Source: Nonomuraea rubra
Lineage (GTDB): Bacteria > Actinomycetota > Actinomycetes > Streptosporangiales > Streptosporangiaceae
Assembly: GCF_014207985.1 (NCBI RefSeq)
Contig: NZ_JACHMI010000001.1
Span: forward strand, 7,113,001-7,177,000
Direction: 5' to 3'
DNA length: 64,000 bases
The translations under genes and the position numbers were made by a program. Shown here piece by piece: positions 26,886 through 33,656 of the stretch (the stretch's first letter is position 1; every line of letters begins with the position of its first letter). The notes below the pieces were generated by a model, which did not search any database, was not told the origin of the DNA, and saw only the letters and a list, made by a program, of their open reading frames with translations.

Positions 26886-27710
26886 TCAGGCGAGGATGCG
26901 GGTCGAGGCGGCCCAGCCGTGCCCGACCTCACGCGGAGTGCCGCCGGTGTAGGGCTGGCCGTTGTCGCGCACGAAGTTGTTGCTGTAGAGCATCATCTTG
27001 CCGGCGGAATCCACAGCCAGCAGGTCCGTGAAACCGTCACCGGTGACGTCAGCCGGGATGACACGAGTCGAAGCGGCCCAGCCATGCCCAACCTCGCGCG
27101 GGGTGCCACCGGTGAAGGGCTGGCCGTTGTCGCGCACGAAGTTGTTGCTGTAGAGCATCATCTTGCCGGCGGAATCCACAGCCAGCAGGTCCGTGAAACC
27201 GTCACCGGTGACGTCAGCCGGGATGACACGAGTCGAAGCGGCCCAGCCATGCCCAACCTCGCGCGGGGTGCCACCGGTGAAGGGCTGGCCGTTGTCGCGC
27301 ACGAAGTTGTTGCTGTAGAGCATCATCTTGCCGGCGGAATCCACAGCCAGCAGGTCCGTGAAGCCATCGCCCGTGACGTCAGCGGCGATGATGCGAGTCG
27401 AAGCGGCCCAGCCATGCCCAACCTCGCGCGGGGTGCCACCGGTGTAAGGCTGGCCGTTGTCACGGGCGAAGTTGTTGCTGTAGAGCATCATCTTGCCGGC
27501 GGAATCCACAGCCAGCAGGTCCGTGAAGCCATCGCCCGTGACGTCCGCCGGGATGACACGGGTCGAGGCGGCCCAGCCATGCCCAACCTCGCGCGGGGTA
27601 CTGCCGGTGTAAGGCTGACCGTTGTCGCGTGCGAAGTTGTTGCTGTAGAGCATCATCTTGCCGGCGGAGTCCACGGCCAGCAGGTCGGCGTACGAGTCAC
27701 CGGTCACGCT
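26886..27710 (-). repeat. Five 165-bp coding repeats (FG-GAP array A)
   Basis: The marker ACCTCxCGCGG recurs at 26926, 27091, 27256, 27421 and 27586, exactly 165 bp apart. Units are nearly identical, differing mainly at synonymous sites and at Ala/Val before RDNGQP. The 165-bp period keeps the reading frame, so unit number can change by recombination. Confidence 0.95.
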
Positions 27711-28304
27711 GTTGCCGGGCAGCTCAGCGGGTTCCGACATGGACCAGACCGCGTTCGCCACGGCTATGCCGTTCGCCGTCTCTTCGGGGTACCTCCAGGG
27801 AAGGGCTGAGACCTGCACGTCCTGGCAGATCTCCCCGATGGGATCATTCCGCCAGTCGAACTGGAGCATCTTGCTGAGGAACTTGTTCGTGGCGTAGACG
27901 GGGTCCAGGATCTGCGCGACCGTTCCCCAGCCCTGGGAGGGACGCTGCTGGAAGAGGCCGACGCTGTCGTCGGCGCCATAGGTCAGGTTGCGGATGGTGG
28001 ATTCGACGATGGTGGTGGTGATGGCGATCTGCGCGGCCCGGACCGGCAGGCCGCGGCTCTTGACGGTGGCGATGATGACGCGGGCGCAGGACACCCGGTA
28101 AGCCGTCATCGCGTCCTCCATGGTGCCGGTCAACTGGCGGTTCAGCTGCGTGGCCATGGCGGCATCAGCCGAGGTGGTCCCGTTCTTGTCGCAGGCCACG
28201 GTGTCCGCGGCGTGCGCGGGAGCCGAAGTCATCACGGCGGTGGGCACCGAGAGGCACAGGAACGCAAGTAATCCGGTCAGGGGTCGAATGAGGGCATGGC
28301 GCAT
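26886..28304 (-). CDS. Secreted lysozyme/SLT-like protein with five FG-GAP repeats
   Basis: 472 residues from ATG 28304, preceded by TTGGAG. The signal peptide ends at APAHAA, near residue 33. Residues about 40-185 form a lytic-transglycosylase/lysozyme-like domain: catalytic Glu101 in TTTIVESTI, followed by GADDSVGLFQQRPSQGWG, the Gly-Leu-Phe-Gln signature of SLT folds. Five 55-residue repeats follow (ADVTGDGFTDLLAVDSAG, KMMLYSNNF, EVGHGWAASTR), each with a DxTGDGxxD calcium-type loop as in FG-GAP/VCBS beta-propellers. It probably cuts or binds peptidoglycan outside the cell. The repeats are nearly identical to those of the adjacent CHAP protein. Confidence 0.83.
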   Translation of the reverse strand: MRHALIRPLTGLLAFLCLSVPTAVMTSAPAHAADTVACDKNGTTSADAAMATQLNRQLTGTMEDAMTAYRVSCARVIIATVKSRGLPVRAAQIAITTTIVESTIRNLTYGADDSVGLFQQRPSQGWGTVAQILDPVYATNKFLSKMLQFDWRNDPIGEICQDVQVSALPWRYPEETANGIAVANAVWSMSEPAELPGNSVTGDSYADLLAVDSAGKMMLYSNNFARDNGQPYTGSTPREVGHGWAASTRVIPADVTGDGFTDLLAVDSAGKMMLYSNNFARDNGQPYTGGTPREVGHGWAASTRIIAADVTGDGFTDLLAVDSAGKMMLYSNNFVRDNGQPFTGGTPREVGHGWAASTRVIPADVTGDGFTDLLAVDSAGKMMLYSNNFVRDNGQPFTGGTPREVGHGWAASTRVIPADVTGDGFTDLLAVDSAGKMMLYSNNFVRDNGQPYTGGTPREVGHGWAASTRILA

Positions 28305-28330
28305 GGCTACTCCAAGAAGACGAAGAAGGG

Positions 28331-28354
28331 GCCCGGTGCCGGTCGGCACCGGGC
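28331..28354 (-). terminator. Hairpin between the two repeat-protein genes
   Basis: GCCCGGTGCC (28331-28340) and GGCACCGGGC (28345-28354) form a perfect 10-bp stem with loop GGTC, 10 bp after the stop of the CHAP gene. It probably terminates that transcript, so the downstream lysozyme-like gene would need its own promoter or read-through. Confidence 0.75.
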
Positions 28355-28364
28355 AGAGGCGGGT

Positions 28365-29190
28365 TCAGACGAGGATGCGGGTCGAGGCGGCCCAGCCGTG
28401 CCCGACCTCGCGCGGGGTGCCGCCGGTGAAGGGCTGGCCATTGTCGCGCACGAAGTTGTTGCTGTAGAGCATCATCTTGCCGGCGGAATCCACAGCCAGC
28501 AGGTCCGTGAAACCATCGCCCGTGACGTCAGCCGGGATGATGCGAGTCGAGGCGGCCCAGCCATGCCCAACCTCGCGCGGAGTGCCACCGGTGAAGGGCT
28601 GACCGTTGTCACGGGCGAAGTTGTTGCTGTAGAGCATCATCTTGCCGCCGGAGTCCACAGCCAGCAGGTCCGTGAAGCCATCGCCCGTGACGTCAGCCGG
28701 GATGATGCGAGTCGAAGCGGCCCAGCCATGCCCAACCTCGCGCGGAGTGCCACCGGTGTAAGGCTGACCGTTGTCACGGGCGAAGTTGTTGCTGTAGAGC
28801 ATCATCTTGCCGGCGGAATCCACAGCCAGCAGGTCCGTGAAGCCATCGCCCGTGACGTCAGCCGGGATGATGCGAGTCGAAGCGGCCCAGCCATGCCCAA
28901 CCTCGCGCGGAGTGCCACCGGTGTAAGGCTGACCGTTGTCACGGGCGAAGTTGTTGCTGTAGAGCATCATCTTGCCGGCGGAATCCACAGCCAGCAGGTC
29001 CGTGAAGCCATCGCCCGTGACGTCAGCCGGGATGACACGGGTCGAGGCGGCCCAGCCATGCCCGACCTCGCGCGGGGTACTGCCGGTGTAAGGCTGACCG
29101 TTATCGCGGGCGAAGTTGTTGCTGTAGAGCATCATCTTGCCGCCGGAGTCCACAGCCAGCAGGTCGGCGTACGAGTCACCGGTCACGCTG
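28365..29190 (-). repeat. Five 165-bp coding repeats (FG-GAP array B)
   Basis: Same 165-bp period as array A (markers at 28405, 28570 and so on). Units share long identical stretches with array A, including the first unit's distinctive VTGDSYADLLAVDS and GSTPREV variant, which indicates duplication plus continuing gene conversion. Confidence 0.93.
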
Positions 29191-29837
29191 TTGCCGATCA
29201 TCGGCTCGCTGTCGTCGACGCCCACGGGTGACGAATAGCCGACGATGTCGCCGCTGGAGCGGGAGCGGGAGTGGGAGGCGATCCGGCCGTTGTCGGTGTT
29301 GCCCTCGATCGTATAGACCGTGCTGGAGTTCGCGGATCTGACGAGACCCACGTGGTCGATCCCGCCGTCGCCGCCCCAGTCGAAGACGATGGCGTCACCG
29401 GGCTGAGGCGTGTAACCGCTGCCGCGGCTGTGCCAGGTGCCGTGCTTGACGCCGTACTCCCTGAAGGATTCCGCCCAGCCGGTGATGGTGTTGCCGTCAC
29501 CCTTGGCGGCATCCGACACGCCGGCCTTCATCCAGACGTACTCGGCGAAGTCCGCGCACCAGTCGCTCTGGCGCCACTGGACGCCGTCGGAGGAGGGGCA
29601 TCCTGATGAGGGTTTCCAGTCGCGCATGTAACCGGTATAGAAGTTGCACTTGCTCGAGGCTTCGTGGTTCCGGCTCGAGTCGCCGAGCTCGTCCTGGGCG
29701 ATGGAGACGATCGTCGAGCGGGTGGCCGCGGCAGCGGGGGCCGACGAGGCGGCGACCATCCCGAGCGCGACGACCGGGACGGTGAGGAGCGAGCTCAGGA
29801 TGCGGGTGTATGGGGTGTTGCCCTGACGCGTTGTCAT
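28365..29837 (-). CDS. Secreted CHAP-domain endopeptidase/amidase with five FG-GAP repeats
   Basis: 490 residues. The signal peptide ends near APAAAATR. Residues about 40-205 are a CHAP domain: catalytic Cys94 in SDWCADFAEYVW and His162 in GGIDHVGLV, followed by YTIEGNTDNGR. CHAP enzymes cleave peptidoglycan cross-bridges or the amide bond to the glycan. Five FG-GAP-like repeats with a 55-residue period follow, almost the same as in the next gene. No ribosome site is seen before ATG 29837. It lies 47 bp after the SARP regulator on the same strand, so it may be co-transcribed with it. Confidence 0.87.
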   Translation of the reverse strand: MTTRQGNTPYTRILSSLLTVPVVALGMVAASSAPAAAATRSTIVSIAQDELGDSSRNHEASSKCNFYTGYMRDWKPSSGCPSSDGVQWRQSDWCADFAEYVWMKAGVSDAAKGDGNTITGWAESFREYGVKHGTWHSRGSGYTPQPGDAIVFDWGGDGGIDHVGLVRSANSSTVYTIEGNTDNGRIASHSRSRSSGDIVGYSSPVGVDDSEPMIGNSVTGDSYADLLAVDSGGKMMLYSNNFARDNGQPYTGSTPREVGHGWAASTRVIPADVTGDGFTDLLAVDSAGKMMLYSNNFARDNGQPYTGGTPREVGHGWAASTRIIPADVTGDGFTDLLAVDSAGKMMLYSNNFARDNGQPYTGGTPREVGHGWAASTRIIPADVTGDGFTDLLAVDSGGKMMLYSNNFARDNGQPFTGGTPREVGHGWAASTRIIPADVTGDGFTDLLAVDSAGKMMLYSNNFVRDNGQPFTGGTPREVGHGWAASTRILV

Positions 29838-29884: not shown

Positions 29885-32800
29885 CTAATGCGTTGAGAGC
29901 TCCTTGGACTCACGGGCTCCGTGTCTGGTGAAGACCTCCAACGCCGCTTTGAGTACGGTCTCCGCCGCATCGGTGTCGCCGCGGGCGGCCAGCACAGCGG
30001 ACAGGTCGCGCGCGGCCCGGGCCGCCGGGAGCGGCGTGCGAATCTCCTCCGAGATGGCCATGGCCTGGTCCAGGTGGGCCTCAGCCAGGTCGAGCTGCCC
30101 TTCTGCGAGGTGCACTTCGCCGATGGTGCGCAGCATGAGTGCCTCGCCGTACCGGTCGGAGCGGCTCCTGCACACCTCCAGGGCCTCGACCAGCGAGGGG
30201 AGGGTGGCCGCCGGATGGCCACGGCGGATCTCCACCTTGGCCACCGCCTGGATCGCATAGGCGATCATCAAGGGTTCGCCGACCTCCCGCAGCATCTCCA
30301 GGGCGCGAGCGGCGAGCTCCGCGGCCGGAGCGTAGTCACCGAGGGCGCGATGGACGGTGCTGCGGGTGCGCAGGGTGAGCGCCTGCCCTCGCCGGCTACC
30401 GGAGCGGGAGTAGGCCGCCATGGCCCGGTCGAGCTGTTGCCAGGCGTCCTCGTAATCGCCGAGCTCCAGGTGTATGGCGGCGGCGGCGCGGGCCGCCGCG
30501 CCGAGGCCGAGATCGTCACCGAGCCGCTCGAACGCCTCCACCGACCTGGCCAGGTGGTCCAGGCCCTCGCGCAGGAGGCACGACTCCCTGCACGTGTAGC
30601 CGAGGCCGGTCAGGACGACGGCCTCACCCCGGAGGTCACCGGTCTGGCGGAACATGGCCAGGGCCGCCGTCTGATGCTCACGCGCCTGCTCGAAGCGGTC
30701 CATCGAGAAGTGAATCTGGCTCAGTCCGGCCAGCAGGCGGGCCTCGCCCTGCTGGTTGCCGGCGCGGCGGGCGGCGTCCAGTGCGGCGTCCAGTGCCGCG
30801 CGCCAGTCGCCCAGCCGGTTGGCGACGAAGAGGTGGGCGAAGGACAGCGCGGTGGCCAGCTCGCAGACGGCCACGTCCAGGTCCAGCCGGGCGGCGCGCG
30901 CCACGGCCACGATCAGTGCGGGCCCCTCCGCCTCCAGCCAGGCAGCCGGGTCGGCCAGGAGCAGCCTGGCGACGCGGGCGTCGACCGGGTAGGCGGAGTC
31001 GGTGAATTCGGCCAGCTCCAGCTCGCCGGAGGGGGCGCGGGAGCCCGTTTCGGCGATCAGCCAGAGCCAGCTGCCCAGCACGCGGGAGAGGGCCGACTCT
31101 CGCTCCGCCGCGGTGTCGTGAGCCTGCGCGCACTCCGCGGCGAACACCCGTAGCAGCTCGTGGAGGCGGTAACGCAGCTGGCCGGTGGCGTCGACCGCGG
31201 CGGAGTCGACGAGCTGGGCGTCCAGCAGCCGTTCCAGCACGTCCTCCGCGTCACGGAGCGGGACGTCGAGCAGCGGGGCGACGACCCACCCCGCGAAGTC
31301 GGGCGTGCCGAGCAGTCCGAGGCGCCGGAAGGCCTGCTGCGCCTGCGGGTCCAGCGATCGGTAGCTGAGCCCGACACTGGCCCGCACCGCCACGTCGCCC
31401 GCGGCCAGCTCGTCCAGCCTGACGCGCTCGTCGGCGAGGCGCTCGGCCATCGCCGCCAGGGTCCAGTGCCGTCGCGTGACCAGGCGCGCCCCCGCGGTCC
31501 GTACGGCCAGCGGAAGCAGCCCGCACAGCCGGACGATCTCCAGCGCGGCGGCAGGCTCGGCGGCGACCCGTTCCGCCCCGACGACCGAGCCGAGCAACTC
31601 GAGCGCGCTCTCGGTGCCGAGCACGTCGAGGCTGGTCAGCTGGGCGAACGCGAGCCCGGCCAGCCGCCTTCGCGAGGTGATCAGTACCGCGCAGCCCGCC
31701 CCGCCCGGCAGCAGCGGGCGGATCTGCTGCTCGTCGCGGGCGTCGTCGAGGACCACCAGGACCCGGCGCCGGGCCAGCAGGCTCCGGTACAGGTCGGCCT
31801 GGTCCTGCGGCGACTCGGGCTGGGCGTTGTACGGCACGTCGAGCGCCCGCAGGAAGCGGCTGAGCACCTCGGCGGTGGTCGCCGGTGTGCTGGTGGTGCC
31901 ACGCAGATCGGCGAACAGCTGGCCGTCCGGGTAGTTCTCGGTCACCCGGTGGCCGAGATGGACGGCCGCCGCGCTCTTGCCCACGCCGCCTTTCCCCGAG
32001 ATCACCAGAACGGGCGGCGCGCTGTGCTTCGCGGTGAGCAGCGGGGTGAGCCCGGCGACGAGGCCGGCCCTGCCCACGAAGGCGGGCACCTCCGCCGGGA
32101 GCTGGGCGGGCACCACCTGGATCTGGACCGGGGCCGGGGCCGGGGGCCGCGGGCCCGCCGGGGCGACGCCCAGGACGGTGGTGTCGTCCAGGAGGATCGC
32201 CTGGTGCAGCGCACGCAGGTGCGGACCGGGGTCGATGCCTAACCCCTCGGCGAGGGACTGCCGCCCTTCGTCGTAGCTGGCCAGTGCCTCGGGCGCCCGG
32301 CCCAGCCGGTACAGGGTCGTCATCAGCTGCCCGCGCAGCCGCTCGCGGGTGGGGTGCGCGGCCACGAGCGAGGTGAGCTCGGCCACCAGCTCGGCCTGCC
32401 GGCCCAGGATCAGTTCGGCGTCGATGCGTTCCTCCAGCACGCTCAGCCGCAGTTCGGCCAGGCGGGCCGCATCGACGTACAGCACCTCGCCGATCCCGCC
32501 CAGGGCCGGACCCCGCCACTGCGCCTCGGCGGCCCGCAGCGCGCCCGCCGCGTCCTGGTACCGCTCCGCTCTCGCCGCCTGGCGGCCCTCCGCGACATAC
32601 TGCTCGAAGAGCTGAGCGTCGAGCACGTTGTCGCCGAGCCGGAACAGGTATCCCGGAGGCCGGGTCTCGATCGACGCCGTCCGGTCGCCCAGCTTCTGGC
32701 GGAGTGCCGACACGTACGTCTGGATCTGCCCGCGAGCGGTGCCCGGAGCGCACTCTCCCCAGATCAGATCCACCAGCCGGTCGACCGACACCACCTGCCC

Positions 32801-32908
32801 GGCCTGGAGCAGCAGGGCCGCCAGCAGCGCCCGCGGCTTGGGCCCGCCCAGCTGCAGCCGCCGATCGCCGTCCCACACCTCCACCGGACCGAGCACGCGA
32901 AATTCCAC
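29885..32908 (-). CDS. SARP/AfsR-type regulator: BTAD, NB-ARC and TPR domains
   Basis: 1007 residues. Residues 1-90 are an OmpR-type winged helix (FRVLGPVEVWDGDRRLQLGG, then RALLAALLLQAGQVVSVDRL). About 95-245 is the bacterial transcriptional activation domain. An NB-ARC ATPase follows, with P-loop VISGKGGVGKSAA and Walker B RRVLVVLDDARD. The last 350 residues are TPR helices (EARLLAGLSQIHFSMDRFEQ and similar). AfsR-like proteins activate secondary metabolism and development genes after ATP-dependent oligomerisation. No biosynthetic cluster is nearby. The nearest candidates for control are the CHAP and lysozyme-like genes downstream and the divergent dipeptidase. Confidence 0.92.
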   Translation of the reverse strand: MEFRVLGPVEVWDGDRRLQLGGPKPRALLAALLLQAGQVVSVDRLVDLIWGECAPGTARGQIQTYVSALRQKLGDRTASIETRPPGYLFRLGDNVLDAQLFEQYVAEGRQAARAERYQDAAGALRAAEAQWRGPALGGIGEVLYVDAARLAELRLSVLEERIDAELILGRQAELVAELTSLVAAHPTRERLRGQLMTTLYRLGRAPEALASYDEGRQSLAEGLGIDPGPHLRALHQAILLDDTTVLGVAPAGPRPPAPAPVQIQVVPAQLPAEVPAFVGRAGLVAGLTPLLTAKHSAPPVLVISGKGGVGKSAAAVHLGHRVTENYPDGQLFADLRGTTSTPATTAEVLSRFLRALDVPYNAQPESPQDQADLYRSLLARRRVLVVLDDARDEQQIRPLLPGGAGCAVLITSRRRLAGLAFAQLTSLDVLGTESALELLGSVVGAERVAAEPAAALEIVRLCGLLPLAVRTAGARLVTRRHWTLAAMAERLADERVRLDELAAGDVAVRASVGLSYRSLDPQAQQAFRRLGLLGTPDFAGWVVAPLLDVPLRDAEDVLERLLDAQLVDSAAVDATGQLRYRLHELLRVFAAECAQAHDTAAERESALSRVLGSWLWLIAETGSRAPSGELELAEFTDSAYPVDARVARLLLADPAAWLEAEGPALIVAVARAARLDLDVAVCELATALSFAHLFVANRLGDWRAALDAALDAARRAGNQQGEARLLAGLSQIHFSMDRFEQAREHQTAALAMFRQTGDLRGEAVVLTGLGYTCRESCLLREGLDHLARSVEAFERLGDDLGLGAAARAAAAIHLELGDYEDAWQQLDRAMAAYSRSGSRRGQALTLRTRSTVHRALGDYAPAAELAARALEMLREVGEPLMIAYAIQAVAKVEIRRGHPAATLPSLVEALEVCRSRSDRYGEALMLRTIGEVHLAEGQLDLAEAHLDQAMAISEEIRTPLPAARAARDLSAVLAARGDTDAAETVLKAALEVFTRHGARESKELSTH

Positions 32909-32999: not shown

Positions 33000-33656
33000 A
33001 TGACTGATCGACCCATCACGTTGTTGTCCGACCCCAGGGTCGCGGCAGTGCCCGTGATCGATTGCGGCGAGCCGCTCTTCGACTTGCGCAAGCTCCCGGC
33101 CCTGCTCCTGGACGACCGCCAGGCCGACGAGGCAGGCGACTATGCCCGGCTCCGGATCGGCCTGACCGACAGGCTGCTCGTGGCGCAGAGCAAGCTGCCC
33201 CCCGGCCTGAGGCTGCTGGTCGTGGAGGGCTACCGGCCACTCGCCCTGCAGGAGAAGTACTTCTCCCGCTACCGCGACGAGCTGCGCCGGGCCAATCCCG
33301 CCTGGAGCGAGGAGCACCTCCGCATCCAGGCCAGCCGCTCCCTCGCCCCGCCCGAGGTGGCCCCGCACGTGTGCGGGGCGGCGGTCGATCTCACGCTGGT
33401 GGCCGAGGACGGCGTCGAGGTGGAGATGGGCACGCCGGTCAACGCAGGACCGGAGGAGAGCGGCGGCAGGTGCTACACGCACCACCCGGAGATCTCCGCC
33501 GGGGCGCGGGCCAACCGCCGGCTGCTCTGCGACGCCATGAGCGGGGCCGGGTTCGTCAACTACCCGACCGAATGGTGGCACTGGTCCTACGGCGACAGGT
33601 ACTGGGCGCTGATCACCGGCGCCCCCACCGCCATCTACGGACCGGCCGGTGGCTGA
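33000..33656 (+). CDS. VanX-type D-Ala-D-Ala dipeptidase (peptidase M15D-like)
   Basis: 218 residues, no signal peptide. Zinc ligands and catalytic residues follow the M15 pattern: VEGYRP with Arg79, His123 and Asp130 in PHVCGAAVD, catalytic Glu191 and ligand His194 in EWWHWSYGD. The family hydrolyses D-Ala-D-Ala or related cell-wall dipeptides, either as a glycopeptide-resistance enzyme (VanX) or in wall turnover. There are no vanH or vanA genes beside it, so turnover is the simpler reading. ATG 33000. It is divergent from the SARP gene with a 91-bp gap. Confidence 0.85.
   Translation: MTDRPITLLSDPRVAAVPVIDCGEPLFDLRKLPALLLDDRQADEAGDYARLRIGLTDRLLVAQSKLPPGLRLLVVEGYRPLALQEKYFSRYRDELRRANPAWSEEHLRIQASRSLAPPEVAPHVCGAAVDLTLVAEDGVEVEMGTPVNAGPEESGGRCYTHHPEISAGARANRRLLCDAMSGAGFVNYPTEWWHWSYGDRYWALITGAPTAIYGPAGG

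What the first reader, a model, noticed from the sequence alone, without database searches (positions are those of the whole stretch)
26886..29837. Twin secreted wall hydrolases with homogenised five-unit FG-GAP arrays
Two unrelated catalytic domains (lysozyme/SLT-like and CHAP) are each joined to five 55-residue repeats of exactly 165 bp that are almost identical between the genes. They could act together: one cuts glycan, the other peptide, and both are held by the same propeller-like binding module. Ongoing gene conversion would keep their target identical. Together with the SARP regulator upstream and the VanX-type dipeptidase this may be an undescribed wall-lysis, predation or development system.
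Basis: partly seen in the sequence, partly recalled or inferred. Interest (0 to 1): 0.72.

Follow-up and report, generated by a model that had tools for sequence, protein, structure and literature searches.

The report
Wall-cutting enzymes sharing matched sugar-binding propellers
Two neighbouring secreted enzymes predicted to cut bacterial cell walls in different ways carry the same wheel-shaped, probably sugar-binding domain, and in related soil bacteria that domain is of other types while neighbouring enzymes still match, which points to a wall-lysis system whose address can be changed.

Summary
Two adjacent genes code for a GH184-like muramidase and a CHAP hydrolase, each followed by five 55-residue repeats (165 bp). 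The arrays are 95% identical in DNA; the catalytic domains are unrelated. AlphaFold models give a five-bladed propeller like tachylectin-2 and the umbrella-toxin lectin UmbA4. The genes sit in a recurring locus with an AfsR-like SARP and an M15 dipeptidase, also found in other genera of the family. The lectin type differs between genomes, even where catalytic domains remain 81-88% identical, yet muramidase and CHAP enzyme of one locus matched in 14 of 14 readable pairs and 7 of 7 database pairs on one contig. In three genomes with the window's type, arrays group by genome: concerted evolution. Best reading: a lectin-addressed wall-lysis system, more likely against competing actinomycetes than against the own wall. 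Ligand, activity and target are untested. It is not an umbrella toxin: A and B lack the trypsin-like domain. Novelty: a new variant of a known kind, matched lectins swapped across unrelated hydrolases.

The parts
26886..28304 (-). Gene A: secreted GH184-like muramidase with C-terminal propeller (472 aa from the ATG; 487 aa from the GTG at 28349)
27741..28154 (-). Catalytic domain of A, aligned with the GH184 structure 8b2e (residues 66-203 counted from the GTG); invariant E116
26889..27713 (-). Five-blade propeller array of A (residues 213-487 counted from the GTG)
28365..29837 (-). Gene B: secreted CHAP hydrolase with C-terminal propeller (490 aa)
29298..29570 (-). CHAP domain of B (residues 90-180); invariant C94, H162, N180
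28368..29192 (-). Five-blade propeller array of B (residues 216-490)
29885..32908 (-). AfsR-like SARP regulator (BTAD, NB-ARC, TPR), 47 bp upstream of B on the same strand
33000..33656 (+). M15 D-Ala-D-Ala dipeptidase-like protein, divergent from the SARP, 91 bp between them; no signal peptide seen by eye

Best explanation
The two genes are the local form of a lectin-addressed wall-lysis locus. Shown by calculation: a SARP regulator and an M15 dipeptidase are linked to secreted peptidoglycan hydrolases of different chemistry (muramidase, CHAP; at some loci also M23 or GH25). Muramidase and CHAP enzyme of one locus carry the same propeller domain; its type differs between genomes, and the two copies are kept alike by recombination confined to about the domain. 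Inferred: the propeller is a multivalent lectin for a repeating wall glycopolymer; it holds a glycan cutter and a peptide cutter on the same wall; the address changes on both because they work as a set. Inferred with less certainty: the wall belongs to competing actinomycetes, and the M15 enzyme handles released or own D-Ala-D-Ala.
Confidence: 0.55

Rival explanations
1. Self-directed wall remodelling or programmed autolysis: the propellers bind the producer's own strain-specific wall glycopolymer, and lectins change when that polymer changes; SARP control ties this to development.
For: SARP and a probably cytoplasmic M15 enzyme are linked to the hydrolases; the window's genome shows one strong muramidase and one strong CHAP match only; no immunity gene was recognised.
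Against: Seven genomes carry hydrolases with two different lectin types, and the same types recur in other genera; the lectins are related to those of umbrella toxins.
Confidence: 0.25
2. Predation or scavenging: the enzymes dissolve walls of dead or neighbouring cells for food, with M15 using released D-Ala-D-Ala.
For: Several cut types are combined and an M15 dipeptidase is linked.
Against: Food use does not require one exchangeable address per locus; no transporter was seen among the ten flanking proteins scanned.
Confidence: 0.1
3. Ordinary gene family: the propellers are generic spacers or weak binders; matching reflects gene conversion between neighbouring repeats without functional need.
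For: Repetitive DNA recombines easily; newly amplified propellers are common in bacteria, Actinobacteria among them (PMC9218822, passages).
Against: Easy recombination of like repeats does not explain how unrelated lectin types come to be shared by both enzymes again and again, including tachylectin-like domains outside the FG-GAP type.
Confidence: 0.07
4. A and B are accessory parts of an umbrella-toxin particle.
For: The arrays are related to UmbA lectins; the same genome has three ALF-repeat loci, with FG-GAP proteins carrying a trypsin-like region about 2 kb from two of them.
Against: A and B lack the trypsin-like domain; none of the 20 ALF matches listed falls in the window, the nearest ending about 59 kb before its start.
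Confidence: 0.03

Closest known systems
Streptomyces umbrella toxins, UmbA lectins (PMC11062931: passages; PMC13274773: abstract, passages, sections 12 and 13)
   Same: Secreted actinomycete proteins with exchangeable propeller lectins of many families; related propellers by sequence and model. Per the paper, the lectins bind hypervariable wall glycopolymers and swapping them retargets the particle.
   Different: There one lectin per UmbA on a trypsin-like adaptor that assembles with UmbB and UmbC; here lectins sit directly on peptidoglycan hydrolases and are matched across enzymes. UmbA4 pockets diverge between blades per the paper, while the window's blades are nearly identical.
Podospora HNWD/het-d, het-e genes (PMC1805685, passages)
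   Same: Propeller repeats of several genes evolve in concert within a genome and serve as a recognition part, per the paper.
   Different: Fungal NACHT-WD40 proteins of one family; here unrelated bacterial enzymes share the array, and whole lectin types are exchanged.
GH184 muramidases (PMC10394673, passages)
   Same: Fold and essential Glu.
   Different: The described ones are fungal, some with an SH3-like wall-binding domain; here bacterial, with a propeller.
Tachylectin-2 and AAL2/PVL lectins (PMC4483166, passages)
   Same: Propeller fold; a Trp in the connecting segment of each blade aligned with AAL2 Trp112; five blades as in tachylectin-2.
   Different: The AAL2 Asn and His positions are not kept, so GlcNAc binding cannot be assumed.
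Modular phage endolysins with CHAP domains (recalled; fold matches Ly7917 and PlyPy)
   Same: Catalytic domain plus wall-binding domain.
   Different: Chromosomal, SARP-linked, several enzymes per locus sharing one binding domain.

Membership tests
Umbrella toxin (UmbA) | N-terminal trypsin-like domain followed by lectin | tested here: not met
   No trypsin family among the Pfam matches of A or B
Umbrella toxin (locus) | UmbC-type ALF repeats at the locus | tested here: inconclusive
   None of 20 listed ALF matches lies in the window, but only 150 of 391 first-look candidates were scored; no ALF among the 14 window proteins scanned
Umbrella toxin (locus) | UmbB adaptor gene at the locus | not tested
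   No UmbB search was made
GH184 muramidase (protein A) | Fold of the catalytic domain | tested here: met
GH184 muramidase (protein A) | Essential Glu41 of KsGH184 | tested here: met
   E116 aligns with it (position counted by hand) and is invariant in 52 sequences
GH184 muramidase (protein A) | Muramidase activity on peptidoglycan | not testable with these tools
   needs an enzyme assay
CHAP hydrolase (protein B) | Pfam CHAP above its cut-off | tested here: met
   46.5 bits, cut-off 26
CHAP hydrolase (protein B) | Catalytic Cys and His (motif recalled) | tested here: met
   C94 and H162 invariant in 46 sequences
VCBS/FG-GAP/tachylectin-type propeller | Pfam FG-GAP_3 and Tachylectin above cut-off | tested here: met
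   FG-GAP_3 76 and 72.8 bits (cut-off 26.9) in A and B; Tachylectin 35.9 bits (cut-off 29.8) in A only
VCBS/FG-GAP/tachylectin-type propeller | Closed five-bladed fold | tested here: met
AAL2/PVL GlcNAc lectin | Asn/Asp104 and His117 of the GlcNAc pocket | tested here: not met
   Equivalents, mapped by hand, are T, E, A or Q and R; only Trp112 and the Gly before it are kept
AfsR-type SARP | BTAD, NB-ARC and TPR domains | tested here: met
   all above Pfam cut-offs
AfsR-type SARP | NCBIfam AfsR equivalog cut-off | tested here: not met
   657 of 1430 bits
VanX (M15 protein) | NCBIfam dipept_VanX equivalog cut-off | tested here: not met
   38.6 of 320 bits; it does pass Pfam Peptidase_M15, 65.7 bits against 27

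The most novel reading that the evidence does not exclude
A new class of bacterial antagonism: an arsenal of two or more secreted peptidoglycan hydrolases of different chemistry, all addressed by one exchangeable multivalent lectin, in which recombination re-addresses the whole set together so that the producer can follow changing wall glycopolymers of competitors.
Probability: 0.4. Interest if true: 0.88.

Novelty: new variant of a known kind. Interest (0 to 1): 0.74.

Why it matters
If true, actinomycetes hold, beside antibiotics and umbrella toxins, a protein system that aims several wall-cutting enzymes at one sugar address and changes that address on all of them together. The matched lectins would be ready-made paired binders for little-explored wall glycopolymers, and the locus is a natural case of concerted evolution between otherwise unrelated bacterial enzymes that can be tested directly.

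Tried and rejected
SLT/lysozyme label for A: replaced by GH184-like on fold and catalytic Glu. GlcNAc specificity by analogy with AAL2 and tachylectin-2: not claimed, since pocket residues differ. Recent duplication of one whole gene: rejected, the catalytic domains are unrelated. Enrichment of genome-specific blade changes at AAL2 pocket positions: 3 of 8 pocket-equivalent positions are among the 11 varying positions of the 41 compared (the 3 of 8 counted by hand); too few to claim. The first genome-contig scan found nothing confirmed; the second was not used. The promoter and terminator scan gave no promoter-like site and two weak terminator-like sites, no more than chance. Plasmid, phage, viral-contig, Rfam and defence-library searches were not made.

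Papers: term searches were made; of these 58, 74, 75, 88, 89, 94 and 95 bear on this kind of locus, and I saw no description of it in their listings (one search returned none). Listings are capped, and most subscription papers are not held.

Rows dropped and limits: one search used muramidase hits with E up to 3e-35 (33 rows), CHAP hits up to 3e-27 (20) and M15 hits up to 1e-16 (94) in the genus, and 15, 15 and 72 (M15 up to 1e-45) in other genera; weaker rows were left out and some tables were cut by the tool. Its chance figure of 0.0036 per hit is a rough estimate of mine. Of the five CHAP hits in the genus without M15 within 10 kb, four lie within 3.5 kb of a contig end. The permutation figure of 1.5e-7 treats 12 loci as independent and uses types grouped by eye. 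The 12 pairs leave out G075 at 6.5 Mb, whose CHAP frame is short and lies about 10 kb from the muramidase; 10 of the 12 come from the strong hits, two (G008, second set of G073) from weaker CHAP matches. Two rows's list of unlike lectins involve L054, whose lectin is cut off and was not typed; I do not count them. Some database proteins may come from the fetched genomes. M23, GH25 and other partners were found with the lectin as query, so their match is by construction.

Full report
What is there. On the minus strand lie, in order of transcription, a SARP regulator (29885-32908), gene B (28365-29837, CHAP) and gene A (26886-28304, muramidase-like). Divergent from the SARP, with 91 bp between them, lies an M15 dipeptidase gene (33000-33656). 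A and B each end in five repeats of 55 residues, 165 bp each. Ten flanking proteins were scanned: two short-chain dehydrogenases, HTH/MLTR, TetR and winged-helix regulators, an alpha/beta hydrolase, a response regulator, a histidine kinase and two without a match; none points to walls. The organism is taken to be a Nonomuraea, since the closest proteins found are from [Actinomadura] parvosata and Nonomuraea.

Concerted evolution. In the window the A and B arrays share 95.1% of DNA and in G029 91.5%, but only 77.0-78.6% across the two genomes. Fourfold sites differ at 14.5% and 25.0% within, and at 53-63% between genomes. The catalytic domains differ between the same genomes at 20.5% (A) and 40.0% (B) of fourfold sites (all), so the arrays turn over faster than the enzymes they are joined to. 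With G075 and G073 added, the A and B arrays of each of the three genomes with both group together (supports 0.975-1.0). Eleven of 41 blade positions are fixed in at least 80% of blades of a genome and differ between genomes; they lie mostly at positions 15-20 and just around the Trp of the connecting segment. Homology between A and B starts within 61 nt of the end of the catalytic match in 12 of 12 pairs. It ends within 103 nt of the gene end in nine; the other three are cut by a contig end or an N stretch.

A recurring locus. Among 54 genomes of the genus, 15 of 20 strong CHAP hits and 15 of 33 strong muramidase hits have an M15 gene within 10 kb; 10 of 20 CHAP hits have a muramidase within 10 kb, and 9 of 20 have both. 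Seen from M15, 19 of 94 hits are near either enzyme, since M15 has other copies. In other genera of a 120-genome family sample the figures are 8 of 15, 4 of 15, 2 of 15 and 2 of 15, and 11 of 72 from M15. Of 39 loci compared, 26 hold an M15 match and 24 of these have the SARP beside it (about 70-200 nt); the two exceptions hold M15 fragments. Six loci with SARP and M15 show no muramidase or CHAP match (L073-L078), though L073 has another lectin-bearing protein. In seven loci fetched from other genera SARP and M15 are both present in 7 of 7, and adjacent (within about 400 nt) in 6 of 7. Order and direction vary: in G029 it is B, A, SARP, M15 on one strand.

Matched but exchangeable lectins. At least nine lectin types occur across the loci, grouped by eye. 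Muramidase and CHAP genes were found by catalytic domain alone, yet in 12 of 12 pairs, covering seven types, the lectins agree at 80-99% identity, and the own partner is the best match for 23 of 24 lectins (for the CHAP enzyme of G008 a muramidase of G073 scores 400 against 390 bits). Between genomes, 43 of 66 (A) and 44 of 66 (B) lectin comparisons give no BLASTP match. Two pairs from other genera, fetched afterwards as a test, agree (99.6% and 85.8%), as do 7 of 7 database pairs on one contig, one of them from Phytohabitans. Catalytic domains up to 85% (A) and 88% (B) identical carry different lectin types, so lectins are swapped rather than slowly diverged. Other hydrolases at SARP-M15 loci carry the lectin of the locus: M23 in L059 and L068, GH25 in L065 and L066.

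Who is the target? Seven genomes (G020, G026, G034, G065, G073, G075, G076) hold hydrolases with two different lectin types, not all of them beside a SARP and M15. The same types, judged by eye, recur in other genera. This fits bet-hedging against other bacteria, as argued for Umb toxins, better than a match to the own wall, but does not settle it. No immunity gene was recognised.

How it most likely works. Shown by calculation: linked regulator, dipeptidase and hydrolases; propeller fold; matched and exchanged lectins; concerted evolution. Inferred: the SARP switches the set on; the enzymes are secreted; five near-identical blades give many equal weak sites for a repeating polymer; muramidase and CHAP then cut glycan and peptide of the same wall. 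Inferred with less certainty: the wall is a competitor's.

Verdict. Structure and evolutionary pattern are well supported by calculation, lectin function is likely, antagonism is the best but unproven role.

Noticed in passing
G000:C1:7051844-7054042, 653938-654486 and 8948079-8950304 (outside the window): Three ALF-repeat (UmbC-like) loci in the window's own genome; near two of them FG-GAP proteins with a trypsin-like region, i.e. likely umbrella-toxin genes in a Nonomuraea.
   Followed up: partly
L046:5323-6240 (-): M23 peptidase with only two blades of the window's array type (305 aa); a real short array or an assembly collapse of repeats.
   Followed up: no
L045:7910-8074 and L049:5812-6015: Only C-terminal M15 fragments beside arrays of the window's type, with no SARP match in these loci: the dipeptidase seems to have decayed at these loci.
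   Followed up: no
L050:4734-10740: Four adjacent lectin-bearing proteins (one NlpC/P60-like by a weak match, two M23, one muramidase) with lectins of one type, 71-81% identical.
   Followed up: partly
L069:11108-12478 and L073:3050-4465: Lectin-bearing proteins beside SARP and M15 whose N-terminal domain has no Pfam match up to E 1; by eye NlpC/P60-like.
   Followed up: partly
L011/L040 (G029), window: Between-genome divergence at fourfold sites is far higher in the arrays (53-63%) than in the muramidase domain (20.5%) of the same genes.
   Followed up: partly
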